NCBI RefSeq assembly: GCF_015624505.1
Contig: NZ_CP061379.1
Location: forward strand, 4,402,001 to 4,466,000
DNA: 64,000 bases
Source of the DNA: Bradyrhizobium commune
GTDB lineage: Bacteria; Pseudomonadota; Alphaproteobacteria; Rhizobiales; Xanthobacteraceae
Direction of reading: 5' to 3'
Positions 41,586 through 49,412 of this stretch are shown piece after piece. Every line of letters starts with the position of its first letter. Positions within the stretch are counted from its first letter, which is position 1. The translations under genes were made by a program, and so were the position numbers. A model generated the notes under the pieces. It was not told the origin of the DNA, searched no databases, and saw only the letters and a list, made by a program, of their open reading frames with translations.

Positions 41586-42368
41586 ATGTTTGTGACCCAC
41601 GACCTGCTCGCAGGAATCGGCGTCGGCCTCATCAGCGGGCTGGCATCGGGCTTCACAGGCACGAGCCCGGGCGGCGGCCTTGTCATTTTCTCCGTGCTGC
41701 TGCTCGGCGCGGAGCAGCACATGGCCCAGGGCACATCGCTGATCGCGCAGGTGCCGCCGACGGGCCTCGCCGGTGTACGCCGTTACTGGCAGAGCGGCAA
41801 TCGCAGCCCGCTGCAATGGATCGTCTGGATCGGCATCGGATTCCTCGTTGGCGGCGCGGGCGGCGGCTACGCCGCAGCCGCCGTATCCGACGCGATCCTG
41901 CAATGGACCTACGTCGTCTACCTCGTCGCGCTGATCGCTGCGCTGGTGCTCCGCCGTGACCGCAAGGACGGCAGCCACGAGGCTGACAATCCCAAGGAAT
42001 TGCCCTGGCTCCCGCTCTTCCTCATCGGCATGCTGGCGGGCTTTTCCTCCGGCTTCATGGGCATCGGCGGCGGCCTCGCGATCACGGTCGGCCTCGCCGC
42101 CGGGCTCCGTGTGCCGCAGCATCAGGCGCAACTCGTCAGCCTGATCTTCTCGATTATCCCGACCAATATTCCGGCGGCCTGGATCTACTGGAGCAAGGGG
42201 GTCATGGTCGGCTGGCCGGCCATCATCGGCATTCTTGCCGGCCTCTGGATCGGCACCGATTCCGGTGCGCGCATGGCCAATGGCGTCAGCAAATCGGTGC
42301 TGCGCCGGACCATGATCGCCCTCGTCGCGCTGATGGCAATCTACATGACCTACAAGGCGCTGAACTGA
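41586..42368 (+). CDS. TSUP-family (TauE/SafE) membrane transporter
   Basis: 260-aa protein with about eight hydrophobic helices and the twofold repeat typical of TSUP: GLASGFTGTSPGGGLVIFS near the start and GFSSGFMGIGGGLAITVG in the second half. Substrate is likely a sulfur-containing or organic anion. It is the second gene of a tetR-TSUP operon; regulation by the exported compound is inferred. Confidence 0.9.
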   Translation: MFVTHDLLAGIGVGLISGLASGFTGTSPGGGLVIFSVLLLGAEQHMAQGTSLIAQVPPTGLAGVRRYWQSGNRSPLQWIVWIGIGFLVGGAGGGYAAAAVSDAILQWTYVVYLVALIAALVLRRDRKDGSHEADNPKELPWLPLFLIGMLAGFSSGFMGIGGGLAITVGLAAGLRVPQHQAQLVSLIFSIIPTNIPAAWIYWSKGVMVGWPAIIGILAGLWIGTDSGARMANGVSKSVLRRTMIALVALMAIYMTYKALN

Positions 42369-42370
42369 TC

Positions 42371-43075
42371 TCAAGGCCGCTTCGGAATGTTCAGCCCGCG
42401 CTGCACGGCGGGGCGCGCCAGCCCGCGTTCAAGCCAGGCACCGACCGACTTGAACTGGCTGAACTCGACGAGGTCGCCCGCGCCGTAGAAGCCGACGAGA
42501 TTGCGCACCCAGCCGAGCATGGAGATGTCGGCGATGGTATACTCGTCATCCATGAACCATTGCCGGCCGGCAAGATGCGTCTCCATCACGCCGAGCAGGC
42601 GCTTGGCCTCGCTTACGTAGCGGTCCCGCGGCCGCTTGTCCTCGAAATCCTTGCCGGCGAATTTGTGGAAGAAGCCGACCTGGCCGAACATCGGCCCGAT
42701 GCCGCCCATCTGGAAATGCACCCACTGGATGGTCTGGTAGCGGCGCGCGGCATCGAGCGGCAGCAGCATGCCGGTCTTCTCCGCGAGGTATTGCAGCATC
42801 GCCCCGGACTCGAACAGCGGCAGCGGCTTGCCGCCGGGACCGTTGGGGTCGAGCATCGCCGGGATCTTGCCGTTCGGATTGAGTGAAAGGAATTCCGGCG
42901 TCTTCTGGTCGTCCTTGCCGAAATCGACGAGGTGGACCTCGTAAGGCAGTCCGGTCTCTTCCAGCATGATCGAGACCTTGACGCCGTTCGGCGTCGGCAA
43001 GGAATAGAGCTGGAGCAACTCGGGATGCTTGGCCGGCCAGCGCTTGGTGATGGGAAAGGCGGAGAGATCGGACAT
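42371..43075 (-). CDS. glutathione S-transferase family protein (YghU-like)
   Basis: 234-aa protein: N-terminal thioredoxin-like domain (LQLYSLPTPNGVKVSIMLEE, NPNGKIPAMLDP, FESGAMLQYLAE) and helical C-terminal domain (MDDEYTIADISMLGWVRN). The TPNGVK segment and general length fit YghU-type disulfide-bond oxidoreductases rather than classical GSTs. Start chosen at 43075. Convergent with the TSUP gene. Confidence 0.88.
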   Translation of the reverse strand: MSDLSAFPITKRWPAKHPELLQLYSLPTPNGVKVSIMLEETGLPYEVHLVDFGKDDQKTPEFLSLNPNGKIPAMLDPNGPGGKPLPLFESGAMLQYLAEKTGMLLPLDAARRYQTIQWVHFQMGGIGPMFGQVGFFHKFAGKDFEDKRPRDRYVSEAKRLLGVMETHLAGRQWFMDDEYTIADISMLGWVRNLVGFYGAGDLVEFSQFKSVGAWLERGLARPAVQRGLNIPKRP

Positions 43076-43138
43076 CGGAACCTTCGATCCAAAGTTGAGG
43101 CGCATCTAATCTAGGCGAGGCGTCGCATGACGCAAGCG

Positions 43139-43804
43139 TCAGTAGTTGATTTCCATCCGCAATCCGCGTGGATCCTCTTCCCCGCCGATACGCTCCTTGC
43201 TGTCGCGAGCGGCGACTGCGCAAGCACAGGCGTCGATGAGATCATCGCGGCCGATGCCGGTGCGGTGACGCCACGTCAGCCATTTCGGCAACCGCGTGAA
43301 CCCGCGTTGCGCCAGCACGGCGATGCGTTGCTCGCGCCCTTGCGCCGATGTCTTCTTGGCAAGCCGGACCCGACCTGCCAGATTCCAGAAGATCAATTCC
43401 GGATGCGCTTCGCCGATCGTCGCTTGCCGTTCCGGTGTCATGAACTCGTCGACCTCCCTCAGCTTGTCCCTGATATTCCAGAGTTGCGCCGACACACCCT
43501 TGTCGTCACGCTGCCAGTAGTCCTCATTCGCCGTTGCCATGTCTGAAAACAGCCAGAGACCCCGGCGCGCGCCCAGGAAGACGGCGGGACCGACCAATTT
43601 GCGCGCCTCCTCGTCGCAGCGACGGTAGCCACTCGCTTCTAATCCGATCGGCATGTCGATCATCGCGCGCGCATGCGGCATCACGAGCAGTCGCGTGAGA
43701 CCCGGCGAATAATCAAACCCGTGATCGCCGCGATCGTCGATCCAGGCTGCGACCCAGCCGAAGCGAAATCCATCGAGGCCGAGATAGCTTGGCACGCTCT
43801 CCAT
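43139..43804 (-). CDS. DUF429 protein (predicted RNase H-like fold)
   Basis: 221-aa protein. GLDGFRFGWVAAWIDD at the start has the conserved acidic residue of the RNase H-like fold, and MIDMPIGLEASGYRRCDEEAR and GRDDLIDACACAVAA add the other family blocks of DUF429. Function unknown. AGGA 5 nt upstream favours ATG 43804 over 43810. It is transcribed away from the RNA-repair locus. Confidence 0.82.
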   Translation of the reverse strand: MESVPSYLGLDGFRFGWVAAWIDDRGDHGFDYSPGLTRLLVMPHARAMIDMPIGLEASGYRRCDEEARKLVGPAVFLGARRGLWLFSDMATANEDYWQRDDKGVSAQLWNIRDKLREVDEFMTPERQATIGEAHPELIFWNLAGRVRLAKKTSAQGREQRIAVLAQRGFTRLPKWLTWRHRTGIGRDDLIDACACAVAARDSKERIGGEEDPRGLRMEINY

Positions 43805-43849
43805 CCACATCCTGTCGTCAGTGTCTTGAAATTTTCACACGCGTCTCGC

Positions 43850-43878
43850 TTGACATCCGCAAGTTGCAGGCGTATTTC
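43850..43878 (+). promoter_or_regulatory. sigma70-type promoter upstream of the RNA-repair locus
   Basis: TTGACA (43850-43855), 17-bp spacer, TATTTC (43873-43878). The -35 is perfect consensus. It points towards the Ro60 locus and is divergent from the DUF429 gene. Transcription would start near 43885. Confidence 0.6.
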
Positions 43879-43884
43879 CCGCGG

Positions 43885-44081
43885 CCTCGCGAGCACTTCC
43901 GTTCGTGAAATCGATGAACCCGATGATGAAGCACAGCTACGAAAGATTTGCGCGACTGTCGAACGGCCTACGGCCGATCGATTGCGCATGCCCGGCTCAT
44001 GGGAGCGATCTTGCCTGACCGCAAGATCGACAGTCCGCTTCTCACGGACCCTCCCGAGCCTGCCGCTCCGGAGGGTTTTTT
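43885..44081 (+). ncRNA. candidate structured small transcript upstream of the Y RNA array
   Basis: Between a good promoter (43850-43878) and a strong intrinsic terminator (44048-44081) lie about 195 nt without a normal gene. The sequence can fold: GACTGTCG (43954-43961) pairs with CGACAGTC (44028-44035), enclosing a 9-bp hairpin CGATCTTGC/GCAAGATCG near 44006-44029. It also holds a 34-codon frame from ATG 43914 to 44018 with a CACPAHG segment but no ribosome site. So it may be a small RNA or a small mRNA; the structure slightly favours RNA. Family not recognised. The overlap of the two stems at CGA is one base-pair choice I could not resolve by hand. Confidence 0.42.
44048..44081 (+). terminator. 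intrinsic terminator
   Basis: ACCCTCC (44048-44054) pairs with GGAGGGT (44070-44076), with a nested GAGC/GCTC stem inside, followed by six T. There is no plus-strand protein gene before it other than a possible 34-codon frame. Confidence 0.85.
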
Positions 44082-44206
44082 CTTGCCCACCGTGCGGCCC
44101 GTTCGAACATCCCGGCATTGGCCGGAACGGGAGACCCGGATCCCGGGGGCTCGCGCTCGAGAAGCGCGTGCCCAAATGCGCGGGGCCTGCCGGAGGGAAC
44201 AAGGCG

Positions 44207-44290
44207 ATGAGCCGGACACCGATGGCAGAGCGAACCCGAATGGTTCGCAACATGCGGCGCGTCGACAGCGCCGCGATCGAATTTTTGTAA
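44207..44290 (+). CDS. possible 27-aa basic peptide
   Basis: ATG 44207 follows a good ribosome site GGAGGG 9 nt upstream and encodes MSRTPMAERTRMVRNMRRVD, then SAAIEFL. It ends 33 bp before the first Y RNA. It could be a leader peptide for the array, or a chance frame. No homologue recognised. Confidence 0.3.
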   Translation: MSRTPMAERTRMVRNMRRVDSAAIEFL

Positions 44291-44322
44291 ATCGGTTTGC
44301 CGCGAGGCTCGCGGCTCAACCG

Positions 44323-44505
44323 ACGCTGGTGGTGAAGATTTCGGATACTTCCTCCACGGTAAAGCGGGTTCGAACCCCGCCTTTGACACACGCACCGGGA
44401 TGCGACCTCGGGAGAGGCTTGCACGCGGCCCGGCGCAGGATCCGTCCGCAAGGACGGCGCCTGTGTTGTCGTCACTGAGAGCCGAGATCGCCTGTTCCCC
44501 AGCGT
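44323..44505 (+). ncRNA. Y RNA 1 of the Ro60-associated array (degenerate tRNA-like module)
   Basis: A 183-nt RNA closed by a perfect 7-bp stem ACGCTGG (44323-44329) / CCAGCGT (44499-44505). Next to it, GGTG (44331-44334) pairs with CGCC (44489-44492), AAG bulges on the 5' strand and TGTTC lies opposite on the 3' strand; CGG (44342-44344) then pairs with CCG (44482-44484). Inside is a perfect T-arm (GCGGG-TTCGAAC-CCCGC, 44364-44380), then a CGCA/TGCG hairpin where the acceptor would be and a CCTC-GGGA-GAGG stem where the D-arm would be, so the tRNA module has partly decayed. A variable hairpin CCGTCC-GCAA-GGACGG (44442-44457) follows. Confidence 0.78.
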
Positions 44506-44537
44506 ACCCATCAACGGCCGGCGCGAAAGCATCGGCC

Positions 44538-44620
44538 TGGCGGTGGTGAAGATGTCTGTTACTTCGTCTGTGAAACGACCGCCCCTTCGGGGCAGCGACA
44601 GCATCGCCCGTTCCCCGCCA
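44538..44620 (+). ncRNA. Y RNA 2 of the array (short, no tRNA-like module)
   Basis: An 83-nt unit with outer stem TGGCGG (44538-44543) / CCGCCA (44615-44620), then T, GGTG (44545-44548) with CGCC (44605-44608), bulged AAG, ATG (44552-44554) with CAT (44602-44604), and CTGT (44556-44559) with ACAG (44598-44601). CGTTC lies on the 3' strand between the two stems. Instead of a tRNA-like module it holds only a short hairpin GCCCC-TTC-GGGGC (44581-44593). It resembles the minimal Ro-binding part of a Y RNA. Confidence 0.72.
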
Positions 44621-44626
44621 ACCCCA

Positions 44627-44789
44627 TCACGGTCCGTGGTGAAGATTTCTGTTACTTCGCCTATCACGCGAGAGGTCGCGGGTTCGAATCCCGCCCGGTG
44701 TACCATGCACCGGTAGCTCAGTGGCCAGAGCGCTTTCCGGCAAGCTTTCGCTTGCCGGGTCTCAGCAATCGCCCGTTCCCGGATCGTGA
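44627..44789 (+). ncRNA. Y RNA 3 of the array (complete tRNA-like module)
   Basis: A 163-nt RNA. Outer 10-bp stem TCACGGTCCG (44627-44636) / CGGATCGTGA (44780-44789), with one G-U. GGTG (44638-44641) pairs with CGCC (44770-44773), AAG bulges, and ATT/AAT and CTG/CAG continue the helix. Inside, in permuted order: variable-loop-like AGGTC, T-arm GCGGG-TTCGAAT-CCCGC (44678-44694), a full 7-bp acceptor stem CCGGTGT (44695-44701) / GCACCGG (44707-44713) joined by loop ACCAT, TA (positions 8-9 of a tRNA) and D-arm GCTC-AGTGGCCA-GAGC (44716-44731). A 9-bp variable hairpin (44737-44758) follows. This is a tRNA mimic with joined ends, as in YrlA-type Y RNAs. Confidence 0.87.
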
Positions 44790-44805
44790 CCCTTTCGTCG
44801 CCACC

Positions 44806-44913
44806 GCCGGTGGTGAAGAGCGCTGTTACTTCGCTGTCGGAGGTTCGAGCCCTCCCGGACACTTGTCCGTAGCTCAGTTGGTAGAGCACGATCAGCCTCG
44901 CTTGTTCCCCGGC
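44806..44913 (+). ncRNA. Y RNA 4 of the array (tRNA-like module with shortened acceptor)
   Basis: A 108-nt RNA ending 40 bp before the rsr start. Outer stem GCCGG (44806-44810) / CCGGC (44909-44913); GGTG (44812-44815) pairs with CGCT (44899-44902) using G-U; AAG bulge; CTG/CAG. Inside: T-arm GGAGG-TTCGAGC-CCTCC (44839-44855), a 5-bp acceptor CGGAC (44856-44860) / GTCCG (44865-44869) with tetraloop ACTT, TA, and the canonical D-arm GCTC-AGTTGGTA-GAGC (44872-44887). TGTTC lies on the 3' strand. No extra variable hairpin is present. Confidence 0.85.
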
Positions 44914-44952
44914 ACCTGTTTTCATTCCATCATCAACCCAGAGGAGGCCGTC

Positions 44953-46278
44953 ATGGTCAGGCTCAACAAGATCGTTCGTGCCTTCACGCGTGAGGGCGCG
45001 CGCGCCGTTCGCTTCACGCCCGAGATAGAGCTGAAGCGCGCGCTGATGAACTGCCTCCTGTGGGAGAACCAGTTCTACGAGGACGGCATCGCCATCGCCG
45101 ACCGCATCAAGGCACTCGTGCCCAAGGTCGCTCCTGCCCGCGTCGCGCAGCTTGCGATCGAGGCGCGCGAGGTGATGAAGCTGCGGCATGCGCCGCTGCT
45201 CGTCGTTCGCGAGATGGCGCGCAGCGAAAAGCACCGCGCGCTCGTCGCCGACACATTGGCTCAGGTGATCCAGCGTCCCGACGAGATGACGGAGCTGCTT
45301 GCGATCTACTGGGCGGATGCGCTCGGCCCGCAGCAGCAGCGCAAGCGTCAGCCGGTTTCGGCGCAGGTGAAGAAGGGTCTCGCTCGCGCGCTGACCAAGT
45401 TCGACGCCTATCAGCTCGCCAAGTACGACCGCGACGGCGCGGTGCGCATCAGGGACGTGCTGTTCCTGGTGCACGCCAAGCCGAAGGACGCCGATCAGGA
45501 GAAGCTGTGGAAGCAGCTCGTCGATGGCGAGCTCGCCTCCCCCGACACCTGGGAGGTTTCGCTCTCGGCCGGCAAGAGCAAGCGCGAGACCTTCGAACGG
45601 CTGATCGCCGAGCGGAAGCTCGGCGGCCTGGCGCTGCTGCGCAACCTGCGGCTGATGCAGAACGCAGAAGTGCCGCGCGAGACCATCGCGGCCGCGATCG
45701 AGGCGATGCGGACGGATCGTATCCTGCCCTATCGCTTCATCACGGCGGCGCGCTATGCGCCGGATTTCGAGCCCGAGCTCGAGACCGCGATGCTCAAGTC
45801 GGTCAAGGACCATGTGCGGCTTCCCGGTCGCACCCGGCTCCTGATCGACGTGTCGGGCTCGATGTTCGCAACCCTCTCCGCGCAGTCGGAAATGACGCGC
45901 GCGGAGGCGGCGTGTGGTCTGGCCATCCTCGCCCGCGAGATCTGCGACGAGGTCGAGATCTTCACCTTCTCCGACAGGGTGGTGAAGGTCCCTCCGCGCC
46001 GCGGTTTCGCGCTCAGGGATGCGATCATCAACTCGCAGCCTCACAGCGGCACTTGGCTCGGCAAGGCCGTGACGGAGATCGACCGCAAGGGCGATCGCCT
46101 GATCGTCTTCACCGACGAGCAGAGCCACGACCGGGTGCCCGAGCCCAAGGCGCGCGGCACCATCGTGAACGTGGCCTCGTATCAGCACGGTGTCGGATAC
46201 GGCGACTGGACCCGCGTCAACGGCTTCTCTGAGGCCGTGGTCGCGTGGATCGCGGCGTCGGAGACAGCGCTGAACTGA
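44953..46278 (+). CDS. rsr: Ro60 orthologue (TROVE and vWA domains), Rsr
   Basis: 441-aa ring-shaped RNA-binding protein. The N-terminal two thirds are TROVE helical repeats (LKRALMNCLLWENQFYEDG early on). The C-terminal vWA domain carries a complete metal site: DVSGS at 299-303, Thr 367 in SGTWLG and Asp 388 in FTDEQ. Ro60 binds Y RNAs on its outer face and ends of misfolded or damaged RNA in its cavity, and can guide nucleases. GAGGAGG about 6 nt upstream gives a strong ribosome site. Four Y RNAs lie directly upstream and rtcB follows 111 bp downstream, forming an RNA-repair operon. Confidence 0.95.
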   Translation: MVRLNKIVRAFTREGARAVRFTPEIELKRALMNCLLWENQFYEDGIAIADRIKALVPKVAPARVAQLAIEAREVMKLRHAPLLVVREMARSEKHRALVADTLAQVIQRPDEMTELLAIYWADALGPQQQRKRQPVSAQVKKGLARALTKFDAYQLAKYDRDGAVRIRDVLFLVHAKPKDADQEKLWKQLVDGELASPDTWEVSLSAGKSKRETFERLIAERKLGGLALLRNLRLMQNAEVPRETIAAAIEAMRTDRILPYRFITAARYAPDFEPELETAMLKSVKDHVRLPGRTRLLIDVSGSMFATLSAQSEMTRAEAACGLAILAREICDEVEIFTFSDRVVKVPPRRGFALRDAIINSQPHSGTWLGKAVTEIDRKGDRLIVFTDEQSHDRVPEPKARGTIVNVASYQHGVGYGDWTRVNGFSEAVVAWIAASETALN

Positions 46279-46389: not shown

Positions 46390-47730
46390 ATGCGACGATC
46401 CGATCCCTACATGGAGCGCGCCCGAGAGCTCTGCCTCGCCGCCGGCGTCGATCCCGACTCGCGCGTCGGCGAAGGACGCGGTCAGCCGGCCTGGTGCTCG
46501 TACCGGGACGCTGCACGCCAGGAGCATCTTGCCCGCGAAGCCAGTGCTGCCGCGAGCGAGATCGCGAATCTGCGCCCGCAGGAGGCACGCTTCCAGAATG
46601 CGCCGCTGAAAATCTTCGGCCCGCATGAGGAGGCGACCATCGCGCAGATGCGCAACTGCATGGCGGTCGGCAATGTCGTGTCCGGCGTCATCTGCGCCGA
46701 CGGCCATCTCGGCTACGCCCAGCCGGTCGGCGGGGTCATCGCCTATGAGAAGCAGATCAGCATCTCCGGCGTCGGCTTCGACATCGGCTGCGGCAACATG
46801 GCGGCACGGCTCGATACCCGCTTCGACGACATTGCGGAGATCGTCCCTACGATCATCCGCGACGTTGCGAAAGTGATCTCGTTCGGCGTCGGCCGTGCCA
46901 ACGCGGAACGCGCCGAGCACGCGCTGTTCGACGACGGCGATGCCTGGCGCGAGAGCGACATGGAGGCCTACCGCCAGAAGGCGGTGAGCCAGCTCGGCAC
47001 GGTCGGCTCGGGCAACCACTATGTCGACCTCATGCGCGACGAGGAAGGCTTTGTCTGGATCGGCGTCCACTTCGGTAGCCGCGGTCTCGGGCACACCTCT
47101 GCGACGCGCTACCTCAAGGCCGCCGGCGGCAAGGACGGCATGAACGTCCCGCCCGCCGTGGTCGACGAGGACTCCGAGCTCGGCCGCCGCTACATCGCGG
47201 CGATGCAACTCGCCGGACGTTACGCTTATGCGGGCCGTGAGTGGGTGGTCGAGCGCGTCCGCCAGATCATCGGCGGCCGCGTGACCGAGAGCGTGCACAA
47301 CCACCACAATTATGCCTGGCGTGAGACCCACGACGGGCGCGATCTGTGGGTGGTGCGCAAGGGCGCGACGCCTGCGTTTCCCGGCCAGAAGGGATTCGTC
47401 GGCGGCTCGATGGGCGACGACGCCGTCATTCTCGAAGGCGTCGACAGCCCCGAGGCCAAGGCTTCGCTTTATTCGACCGTGCACGGCGCCGGCCGCCTGT
47501 TCGGGCGCAAGGAAGCGAAGCGGCGCTTCTCGCGCGCGGAAATGGATCACTGGCTCAACGAGCGTGGCGTCACCCTGATCGGTGCCGACCTCGACGAGAG
47601 TCCGATGGCCTATCGCCGCCTGCCGGACGTGCTCGCGCAGCACGCCGGCACCGTGAAGGTGCTGCACACGCTGCGGCCGTTCGCTGTCGCCATGGCCGGC
47701 GACGGCGAGTTCGATCCGTGGAAGGACTAA
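46390..47730 (+). CDS. rtcB: RtcB-family RNA ligase
   Basis: 446-aa GTP-dependent ligase that joins 2',3'-cyclic phosphate (or 3'-phosphate) to 5'-OH RNA ends. Metal and catalytic residues are in place: Cys 102 in CADGHLGY, Asp 131 and Cys 134 in FDIGCGN, His 210 in GSGNHYVD, His 227 in VHFGSRGLGH, and the guanylated His 365 in VHGAGR. NHHNYAW is also present. The start at 46390 (MRRSDPYMERAREL) has AGGA 5 nt before it. It follows rsr on the same strand. RtcA and the activator RtcR are not in the window. Confidence 0.95.
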   Translation: MRRSDPYMERARELCLAAGVDPDSRVGEGRGQPAWCSYRDAARQEHLAREASAAASEIANLRPQEARFQNAPLKIFGPHEEATIAQMRNCMAVGNVVSGVICADGHLGYAQPVGGVIAYEKQISISGVGFDIGCGNMAARLDTRFDDIAEIVPTIIRDVAKVISFGVGRANAERAEHALFDDGDAWRESDMEAYRQKAVSQLGTVGSGNHYVDLMRDEEGFVWIGVHFGSRGLGHTSATRYLKAAGGKDGMNVPPAVVDEDSELGRRYIAAMQLAGRYAYAGREWVVERVRQIIGGRVTESVHNHHNYAWRETHDGRDLWVVRKGATPAFPGQKGFVGGSMGDDAVILEGVDSPEAKASLYSTVHGAGRLFGRKEAKRRFSRAEMDHWLNERGVTLIGADLDESPMAYRRLPDVLAQHAGTVKVLHTLRPFAVAMAGDGEFDPWKD

Positions 47731-48719: not shown

Positions 48720-49412
48720 TCATCCCTGCTTCATCAACGCCGTGACGTGAAGCCGGCGGCGGATCCGCATCCCCTGCCGCTGGTACAGCGCGATCGCCGA
48801 GGCGTTGTTCGAAAATACGTGCAGGAACGGGATCTCGCCGCGCGCCTCGATCTGGCGCGCGATCGCCGCAAGCAGCGCCTGCGCGTAGCCGCGGCCGCGA
48901 TGCTCGGGATGGACGCAGACAGCGGTCATCTCGGTGAAACTGCCCGGCTTCATGCGCTCGCCGGCCATCGCGGCCAGCTCGCCGCCGGCTCGGATGCCAA
49001 GGAACGTGCCGAGCTCATGCGTTCTTGCGGCGAACGGACCTGGCTTGGTCAGTGCGGTCAGCGCCATCATGGCGGGAACGTCGGCTACGCCGAGCGTGAC
49101 GATCTCGGCGTCGCGCAACGGGCTGTCGGCGGGCGAGCCGATCATCTGCTCGCCGGTCTCGGCCAGCACAATCTTGAAGCCGGCAGGAACATCGACCGGT
49201 TCCGGCGTGAATAGCGCCGCCACCTGCGCGCCAGACATGAGCTCGCCGAGCGCCGCGAAACTCGCCGCTGACATGTCGACCATGTCGGCAAACGGCGTCA
49301 TGTCCACGGGATAGCGCAGTGCCCCCGGGCCACCTTCCGCCAGATGCGTCTGGCGCGTCGTCAGCGCGCCCCAGATCGGCCGATCCAGTAGCCGCACATT
49401 GCTGTCGGACAC
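48720..49412 (-). CDS. GNAT-family N-acetyltransferase
   Basis: 230-aa protein. The acetyl-CoA pyrophosphate loop is in VHPEHRGRGYAQALLAAIA, preceded by the beta strand MTAVC; C-terminal FLHVFSNNASAIALYQRQGM is the usual GNAT motif B. The N-terminal half is degenerate, suggesting a two-GNAT (FR47-like) architecture. GTG 49412 gives VSDSNVRLLDRP; it starts 4 bp after the stop of the Lin0512 gene, so both are in one operon. Confidence 0.85.
   Translation of the reverse strand: MSDSNVRLLDRPIWGALTTRQTHLAEGGPGALRYPVDMTPFADMVDMSAASFAALGELMSGAQVAALFTPEPVDVPAGFKIVLAETGEQMIGSPADSPLRDAEIVTLGVADVPAMMALTALTKPGPFAARTHELGTFLGIRAGGELAAMAGERMKPGSFTEMTAVCVHPEHRGRGYAQALLAAIARQIEARGEIPFLHVFSNNASAIALYQRQGMRIRRRLHVTALMKQG

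What the first reader, a model, noticed from the sequence alone, without database searches (positions are those of the whole stretch)
44323..44913. Tandem array of four Y RNA genes directly upstream of Ro60 and RtcB
Four consecutive units can be folded on the same plan: outer stem, then T, GGTG paired with CGCC or CGCT, a bulged AAG on the 5' strand, CGUUC or UGUUC on the 3' strand, then a short inner helix. The outer stems differ in sequence in all four units (ACGCTGG/CCAGCGT, TGGCGG/CCGCCA, TCACGGTCCG/CGGATCGTGA, GCCGG/CCGGC) but all pair, which is strong covariation. The inner helix also covaries (CGG/CCG in unit 1, CUG/CAG in the others). The GAAG and GUU elements resemble, from memory, the Ro-binding sequence of Y RNAs. 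Bacterial Y RNAs next to rsr are known, but usually one or two; four of different architecture in a row in a Bradyrhizobium-type genome is unusual.
Basis: partly seen in the sequence, partly recalled or inferred. Interest (0 to 1): 0.95.

Follow-up and report, generated by a model that had tools for sequence, protein, structure and literature searches.

The report
Y RNAs with rearranged tRNA heads
Upstream of the Ro60 gene of this Bradyrhizobium-type genome lie four genes for small Y RNAs, a known kind of RNA; two of them carry a tRNA whose parts are joined in a rotated order, opened at two different points, and one of these still has an anticodon arm whose anticodon keeps changing between related bacteria.

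Summary
The four units are real and are best read as Ro60-associated Y RNA genes. In 48 Bradyrhizobium-type Ro60 loci one finder gives four units in 38 and three in 8; it gives none on the reverse strand, downstream or in shuffles. The Y-RNA motif occurs in 39 of 146 genus genomes, all among the 42 with a Ro60 match. Orthologues of units 3 and 4 show strong compensatory change. Four in a row is the usual state here; other alphaproteobacterial loci have up to six. What looks new: the tRNA is opened at different points. Unit 4 is opened in the anticodon loop (as YrlA), unit 3 between D arm and anticodon arm, 13 orthologues of unit 2 in the D loop. Unit 3 keeps a 5-bp, 7-nt anticodon-arm-like hairpin with 16 'anticodons' in 51 sequences, while U33 and a purine at 37 are present in all 51. 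Function is inferred; the key Y RNA papers were not held.

The parts
44323..44505 (+). Y RNA unit 1 (183 nt): outer stem ACGCTGG/CCAGCGT, T-arm-like hairpin 44364-44380, long tip, no D arm seen
   Evidence: outer stem closing pair C-G in 40 and U-A in 4 of 45 sequences
44538..44620 (+). Y RNA unit 2 (83 nt): outer stem TGGCGG/CCGCCA; no tRNA-like head here. 13 orthologues used in A6 have a full head opened in the D loop
44627..44789 (+). Y RNA unit 3 (163 nt): permuted tRNA-like head opened between D arm and anticodon arm
44656..44672 (+). anticodon-arm-like hairpin of unit 3: TTCGC CTATCAC GCGAG
44678..44694 (+). T arm of unit 3: GCGGG TTCGAAT CCCGC
44695..44713 (+). closed acceptor hairpin of unit 3: CCGGTGT ACCAT GCACCGG; the loop is NCCAT in 26 of 50 orthologues
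44716..44731 (+). D arm of unit 3: GCTC AGTGGCCA GAGC
44806..44913 (+). Y RNA unit 4 (108 nt): T arm 44839-44855, acceptor hairpin 44856-44869, D arm 44872-44887; YrlA plan, opened in the anticodon loop
44953..46278 (+). Ro60-related (Rsr-like) protein, TROVE domain, 441 aa, with DVSGS metal-site motif
46390..47730 (+). RtcB-family RNA ligase

Best explanation
The array makes four Y RNAs that are bound and stabilised by the Ro60-related protein encoded next door. Each RNA has a shared foot (outer stem, the near-invariant GGUGAAG and GUUCC strands, a short inner helix), taken to be the Ro60 grip, and an exchangeable head. The heads of units 3 and 4 mimic tRNA with the arms in rotated order; they present a tRNA-like face, so that tRNA-binding or tRNA-modifying enzymes, and by analogy with Deinococcus an exonuclease such as PNPase, are brought to the Ro60 ring and access to the ring is gated. 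Several paralogues give one protein several heads. Shown here: conservation, covariation, tRNA-like order of arms, co-inheritance with Ro60. Inferred: transcription, Ro60 binding, tethering, gating.
For: Same four units in 38 of 48 related loci, no false calls in controls; motif in 39 of 146 genus genomes, all with a Ro60 match; covariation in units 3 and 4; Rfam YrlA as best match of unit 4 and of the head of unit 3; foot motif shared by units with and without a head; Ro60 assigned by TROVE and by solved relatives. Published work: Ro60 tether and RYPER (passages of PMC8394870, PMC4726728, PMC7790460).
Against: No expression or binding data. YrlA matches stay below the curated score. Unit 1 has no D arm that I could see and unit 2 of the window has no head, so they are Y RNAs by foot, place and company only. 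No sigma-70-like promoter was found.
Confidence: 0.75

Rival explanations
1. Anticodon decoy or sensor: the anticodon-arm surface of unit 3, with its changeable anticodon, draws or is cut by anticodon nucleases (of phages, rivals or toxin-antitoxin pairs) in place of tRNAs; Ro60 holds the cut RNA and RtcB, where present, may reseal it.
For: Loop positions 34-36 changed at least 10, 13 and 13 times on the Ro60 tree, 33 never, 37 once; the same kind of hairpin in viral heads, U33 in 20 of 22. Hughes et al. (PMC7790460, passages) name YrlA as a possible competitive inhibitor of the tRNA-cutting nuclease.
Against: No nuclease was tested. The anticodon arm does not track RtcB: 19 Bradyrhizobium-type and 20 viral loci have the arm but no RtcB in the held DNA. 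In the same paper Salmonella YrlA itself was not cut. Copying of short tracts from tRNA genes could give the same pattern: 5 of 17 loops equal an own tRNA loop.
Confidence: 0.2
2. Passive relic: heads are remnants of captured tRNA segments; the anticodon arm only helps the head to fold and its loop drifts or is refreshed by recombination with tRNA genes.
For: Heads are lost or broken often: unit 2 of the window has none, unit 4 lacks its D arm in L072, L074, L084 and L117. CCA is kept in the acceptor loop of 26 of 50 unit-3 sequences, as if left over from a tRNA gene.
Against: U33 and purine 37 are kept in all 51 sequences while the anticodon changes; the closing pair covaries as C-G, U-A, A-U.
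Confidence: 0.3
3. Permuted tRNA genes: unit 3 is a precursor that is cut and joined (with RtcB) into a real tRNA, as permuted tRNA genes of algae and archaea are.
For: Complete set of arms in rotated order; NCCA at the right place in 26 of 50; RtcB next door in this window; permuted tRNA genes with junctions in the D loop and anticodon loop exist (PMC3978253, passages).
Against: The window's anticodon AUC is not among the 44 own tRNAs found; anticodons change between close relatives; acceptor loops lose CCA (24 of 50); RtcB is not near in 19 of 48 Bradyrhizobium-type loci.
Confidence: 0.03
4. Coding or leader sequence: the stretch is an N-terminal extension or untranslated leader of the Ro60 mRNA.
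For: An open frame from 44698 runs into the Ro60 gene; the stretch may well be co-transcribed with it.
Against: The frame is not conserved in length (445 to 599 codons between stops among whole-length hits); insertions and compensatory changes follow RNA stems.
Confidence: 0.03

Closest known systems
YrlA, bacterial Y RNA-like RNA (Rfam RF02553; Salmonella head structure PDB 6CU1)
   Same: Place next to a Ro60 gene; stem of 5' and 3' ends; T arm, acceptor hairpin, D arm in this order; unit 4 aligned over the whole model. Circular permutation of 6CU1 against tRNA is in print (PMC11472068, passages).
   Different: Scores below the curated 69 (43.7, 36.9). Unit 3 keeps an anticodon-arm hairpin and is opened between D arm and anticodon arm; unit-2 orthologues are opened in the D loop; neither is in the Rfam consensus structure printed. 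Two or three head types stand side by side.
Deinococcus Y RNA / RYPER
   Same: Proposed working: Ro60 grip by the stem, effector head, tether to PNPase (passages)
   Different: No sequence relation was tested; PNPase tethering is not shown here.
Circularly permuted tRNA genes of algae and archaea
   Same: tRNA arms in rotated order, with junctions in the D loop or the anticodon loop (PMC3978253, passages)
   Different: Those are matured to tRNAs; here the rotated tRNA is the head of a stem-closed RNA beside Ro60.

Membership tests
Bacterial Y RNA (broad sense) | encoded beside a Ro60 (rsr) gene and inherited with it | tested here: met
   motif in 39 of 146 genus genomes, all among 42 with a Ro60 match
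Bacterial Y RNA (broad sense) | 5' and 3' ends form a conserved stem with conserved loop strands | tested here: met
Bacterial Y RNA (broad sense) | bound and stabilised by Ro60/Rsr | not testable with these tools
   needs pull-down or rsr deletion
YrlA (Rfam RF02553) | score at or above Rfam's curated 69 bits | tested here: not met
   unit 4 43.7, head of unit 3 36.9 bits; units 1 and 2 no match listed up to E 10
YrlA (Rfam RF02553) | head with T arm, closed acceptor hairpin, D arm in this order | tested here: met
   units 3 and 4; not met by window units 1 and 2
YrlA (Rfam RF02553) | strands beside T and D arms pair with each other (tRNA opened in the anticodon loop) | tested here: inconclusive
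   unit 4: in the 32 of 48 sequences with letters there, 82-97% of cells pair, short in the window; unit 3 instead has a local hairpin
YrlA (Rfam RF02553) | tRNA-type modifications in the head | not testable with these tools
   reported for YrlA in PMC8394870 (passages)
Ro60 / Rsr protein | TROVE domain above Pfam's cut-off | tested here: met
   52.8 bits, cut-off 23
Ro60 / Rsr protein | Ro60 vWA domain above Pfam's cut-off | tested here: not met
   21.8 bits, cut-off 27.7; profile of 7 relatives does reach solved Ro60 (9nen, E 2e-8) and Rsr (2nvo, E 7e-7)
Circularly permuted tRNA gene | product matured to a working tRNA | not testable with these tools
   indirect evidence is against

The most novel reading that the evidence does not exclude
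Bacterial and phage Y RNAs carry whole tRNAs opened at several different points, and the subclass that keeps the anticodon arm changes its anticodon under pressure from anticodon nucleases: the Y RNA is a Ro60-held tRNA decoy or damage sensor.
Probability: 0.2. Interest if true: 0.85.

Novelty: new variant of a known kind. Interest (0 to 1): 0.6.

Why it matters
What the heads of bacterial Y RNAs do is an open question. Heads opened at different points of the tRNA, side by side in one operon and its orthologues, suggest that the tRNA face is selected rather than one order of segments. An anticodon loop with fixed U33 and purine 37 but a changing anticodon says that something reads the shape of that loop, or that tRNA genes keep rewriting it. 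Both can be tested in laboratory Bradyrhizobium strains.

Tried and rejected
(1) Rotating unit-3 heads into tRNA order made ARAGORN of 50 (0 of 250 full shuffles), but this does not test the anticodon arm: over all heads with a full D arm it of 185, and 184 of 185 when the arm is shuffled. It bears on T, D and acceptor arms only, which guided the rotation. ARAGORN also of 51 un-rotated unit-3 sequences. (2) read the loop wrongly in part of the rows; one search replaces it. (3) Unit-2 heads (13 sequences): covariation is weak, 5 pairs against 4.5 shuffled, 242 of 500 shuffles as high; the D stem has no both-side change. The D-loop reading rests on the tRNA-like strings GGUAGAGC and UAGCUCAG and on paired cells (93% against at most 58% when slid). 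(4) The automatic count of D-loop-opened heads (18 of 48 and 6 of 32 loci) includes false ones (L104, L109); outside Bradyrhizobium L121, L131, L134 and L137 remain by eye, and one unit in L142. None was matched in 80 viral loci with that strict pattern. (5) Among other genomic heads only 7 of 13 hairpins have U33, so about half may be chance. (6) No link of the anticodon arm to RtcB. (7) Own-tRNA loops: 5 of 17 equal, 12% expected for that loop shape; anticodon in use by an own tRNA 14 of 17, 66% expected: weak. (8) Promoter scan: none; terminator-like sites 3 against 3.1 in shuffles. Rows dropped: 11 units unclassified (among them unit 3 of L072 and unit 4 of L141); of 47 unit-1 sequences 44 were aligned (L095, L106, L114 out), of 43 unit-2 sequences 42 (L109 out); L117 left out of A6; L110, L113, L115 (two unit-3 copies each) and L112 (long branch) left out of the tree. 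Papers not held: Chen 2014 RNA 20:1715, Sim and Wolin 2018, Wang 2018, Chen 2013. Statements on prior art rest on the open library, which lacks these.

Full report
What is there. The window lies in a 7.62-Mb single-contig genome; the best named Ro60 matches are Bradyrhizobium. On the + strand, between a DUF429 gene on the other strand and a Ro60-related gene (TROVE 52.8 bits, cut-off 23) followed by an RtcB gene (225 bits), lie four units, each closed by its own outer stem. No Rfam family reaches its curated score in the window and ARAGORN finds no tRNA there. In 43800-44960 the best low-stringency match is RF02553 YrlA, 'Y RNA-like': unit 4 over the whole model (43.7 bits, E 3.7e-8 for that stretch) and the head of unit 3 (36.9 bits, E 3.4e-6); the curated score is 69.

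Is it more than chance. A finder that knows only GGUGARG, a 3' GUUYC and a closing stem gives four units in 38 of 48 Bradyrhizobium-type Ro60 loci, three in 8, two in 1, one in 1, and none on the reverse complement, none downstream, none in 480 shuffles. In 32 other genomic Ro60 loci it finds 0 to 5 within 1.1 kb (6, 6, 3, 4, 7 and 6 loci with 0, 1, 2, 3, 4 and 5), and six in L121, a Hyphomonadaceae MAG, within 1.6 kb. So four is the usual state here and longer arrays exist. The exact motif of units 2 and 4 occurs in 39 of 146 genus genomes, all among the 42 with a Ro60 match; the other three have a divergent Ro60 (G037, about 50% identity) or pieces of one (G054, G119) (Fisher p 2e-32). In G122, which has no Ro60 match, DNA on both sides of the module is collinear with the window (42202-44308 and 48722-48998) and the module between is missing.

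Structure. Unit 3, 51 sequences: 95.9% of cells pair, 15 pairs with both-side changes (shuffled 10.1, slid at most 5). Unit 4, 48 sequences: 96.6% pair, 14 such pairs (shuffled 4.9, slid at most 9). Unit 1, 45 sequences: RNAalifold keeps outer and inner stems, 5 pairs with both-side changes, but resolves little of the tip.

The heads. In unit 4 the order is T arm, acceptor hairpin, D arm. In the 32 of 48 sequences that have letters there, the strand before the variable loop (such as UCGCA) pairs with the strand after the D arm (such as UGUGA) in 82-97% of cells: a tRNA opened in its anticodon loop, the plan of the Rfam YrlA consensus. In the window's own unit 4 this stem is short. In unit 3 the T arm is preceded by AGGUC, the usual variable loop, and by a hairpin of 5 bp and 7 nt (5 pairs in 39 of 51), while a whole D arm follows the acceptor hairpin: the tRNA is opened between D arm and anticodon arm. 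The closing pair of the hairpin is C-G in 28, U-A in 12 and A-U in 11 sequences. In 13 unit-2 orthologues the 5' part begins GGUAGAGC or a close variant and the 3' part ends UAGCUCAG or a close variant: opened in the D loop, with a hairpin in place of the anticodon arm; covariation there is weak. The window's unit 2 has no head. Unit 1 has a T-arm-like hairpin and a long tip. Heads of both new kinds occur outside Bradyrhizobium, also in an Acidobacteriaceae MAG, L142.

The anticodon arm. Read from the alignment columns, all 51 unit-3 sequences have Y32, U33 and R37 (A in 50); there are 17 loops and 16 anticodons. On a Ro60 tree of 44 loci the fewest changes are 3, 0, 10, 13, 13, 1 and 9 at positions 32 to 38. 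If the 49 changes fell evenly on seven positions, one or none at 33 and 37 together would have a chance of about one in a million (my arithmetic, on parsimony counts, so rough). Five of the 17 loops equal an anticodon loop of this genome's tRNAs and 11 more differ by one base (44 tRNAs). Among 187 distinct permuted heads near Ro60 genes, such hairpins occur in 49 of 99 from loci L067-L117 and L138-L141 (mostly Bradyrhizobium), 13 of 35 other genomic and 22 of 53 viral heads, chance rate 11-12%. Loops of 5, 6 or 8 give 6, 6 and 4 of 99; loops of 9 give 43, which I take to be largely the same hairpins without the closing pair. U33 is present in 46 of 49, 7 of 13 and 20 of 22. So the type is not confined to Bradyrhizobium.

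How it most likely works. From published work on Deinococcus and Salmonella (passages of PMC8394870, PMC7790460, PMC4726728) the foot is the Ro60 grip and the head the effector face that meets tRNA enzymes or PNPase. The shared foot and exchangeable heads fit this. The anticodon arm asks for more: it may complete the mimicry, be a relic refreshed from tRNA genes, or be a decoy or sensor for anticodon nucleases; for YrlA the competitive-inhibitor idea is in PMC7790460, which also reports that YrlA itself was not cut. Against a strict tie to RtcB, none was found in the held DNA of 19 of 48 Bradyrhizobium-type and 79 of 80 viral loci. Maturation to a true tRNA is unlikely: the window's anticodon AUC is not among the 44 own tRNAs found and anticodons change between close relatives.

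What is known. Recalled, not read: Chen et al. 2014 reported likely Y RNAs near Ro60 in more than 250 bacterial and phage species, at least one per species with a tRNA-like domain; so several Y RNAs per locus and tRNA-like heads are not new. Circular permutation of YrlA against tRNA is in print (PMC11472068, passages). My searches of the open library returned nothing on anticodon-arm-bearing or D-loop-opened Y RNAs (listings and some passages seen), but the key papers are not held. Verdict: a known kind with what look like new structural variants; function untested.

Noticed in passing
window 43918-44323: Conserved structured stretch upstream of the array with an intrinsic-terminator-like hairpin (CCCTCC..GGAGGGTTTTTT, by eye; the scan did not list it) and further hairpins, no Rfam match. 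Its 211-bp piece 44100-44310 matches with 148 bits or more in 40 of 146 genus genomes: the 39 with the Y-RNA motif plus G122. Candidate leader or separate small RNA of the Ro60 operon.
   Followed up: partly
L272 (G122), reverse strand: Natural locus with flanks and the leader stretch but without array, Ro60 and RtcB.
   Followed up: yes
L008 and L070: In B. neotropicale foreign DNA, insertion-sequence-like by eye and not checked, takes the place of the first part of the array; unit 4 and the 3' part of unit 3 remain. In G096 another motif and the leader lie on another contig, C34.
   Followed up: partly
L120:3379-3426, L129:3165-3212, L130:3254-3305, L133:3440-3489, L134:3173-3223: Very short head-less Y-like units, with outer stem TCCAGG/CCTGGA in four of the five, upstream of other units.
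   Followed up: no
L128:269-402: Y RNA whose head looks like a class II tRNA (tRNA-Leu-like D arm and an extra hairpin where the long variable arm would be), by eye; other heads have other D arms, which suggests repeated capture of different tRNAs.
   Followed up: no
unit-3 orthologues in A2: ARAGORN of 51 un-rotated unit-3 sequences as tRNAs, so automatic annotation may list false tRNA genes here.
   Followed up: no
L147-L226: Ro60 genes in viral contigs (80 kept of 232 found); 48 of the 80 have a permuted tRNA-like head in the held DNA.
   Followed up: partly
PDB 9l5y, 9kop: Solved TROVE-domain proteins that match the Ro60 profile far better (E 5e-43) than Deinococcus Rsr; no paper looked up.
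   Followed up: no
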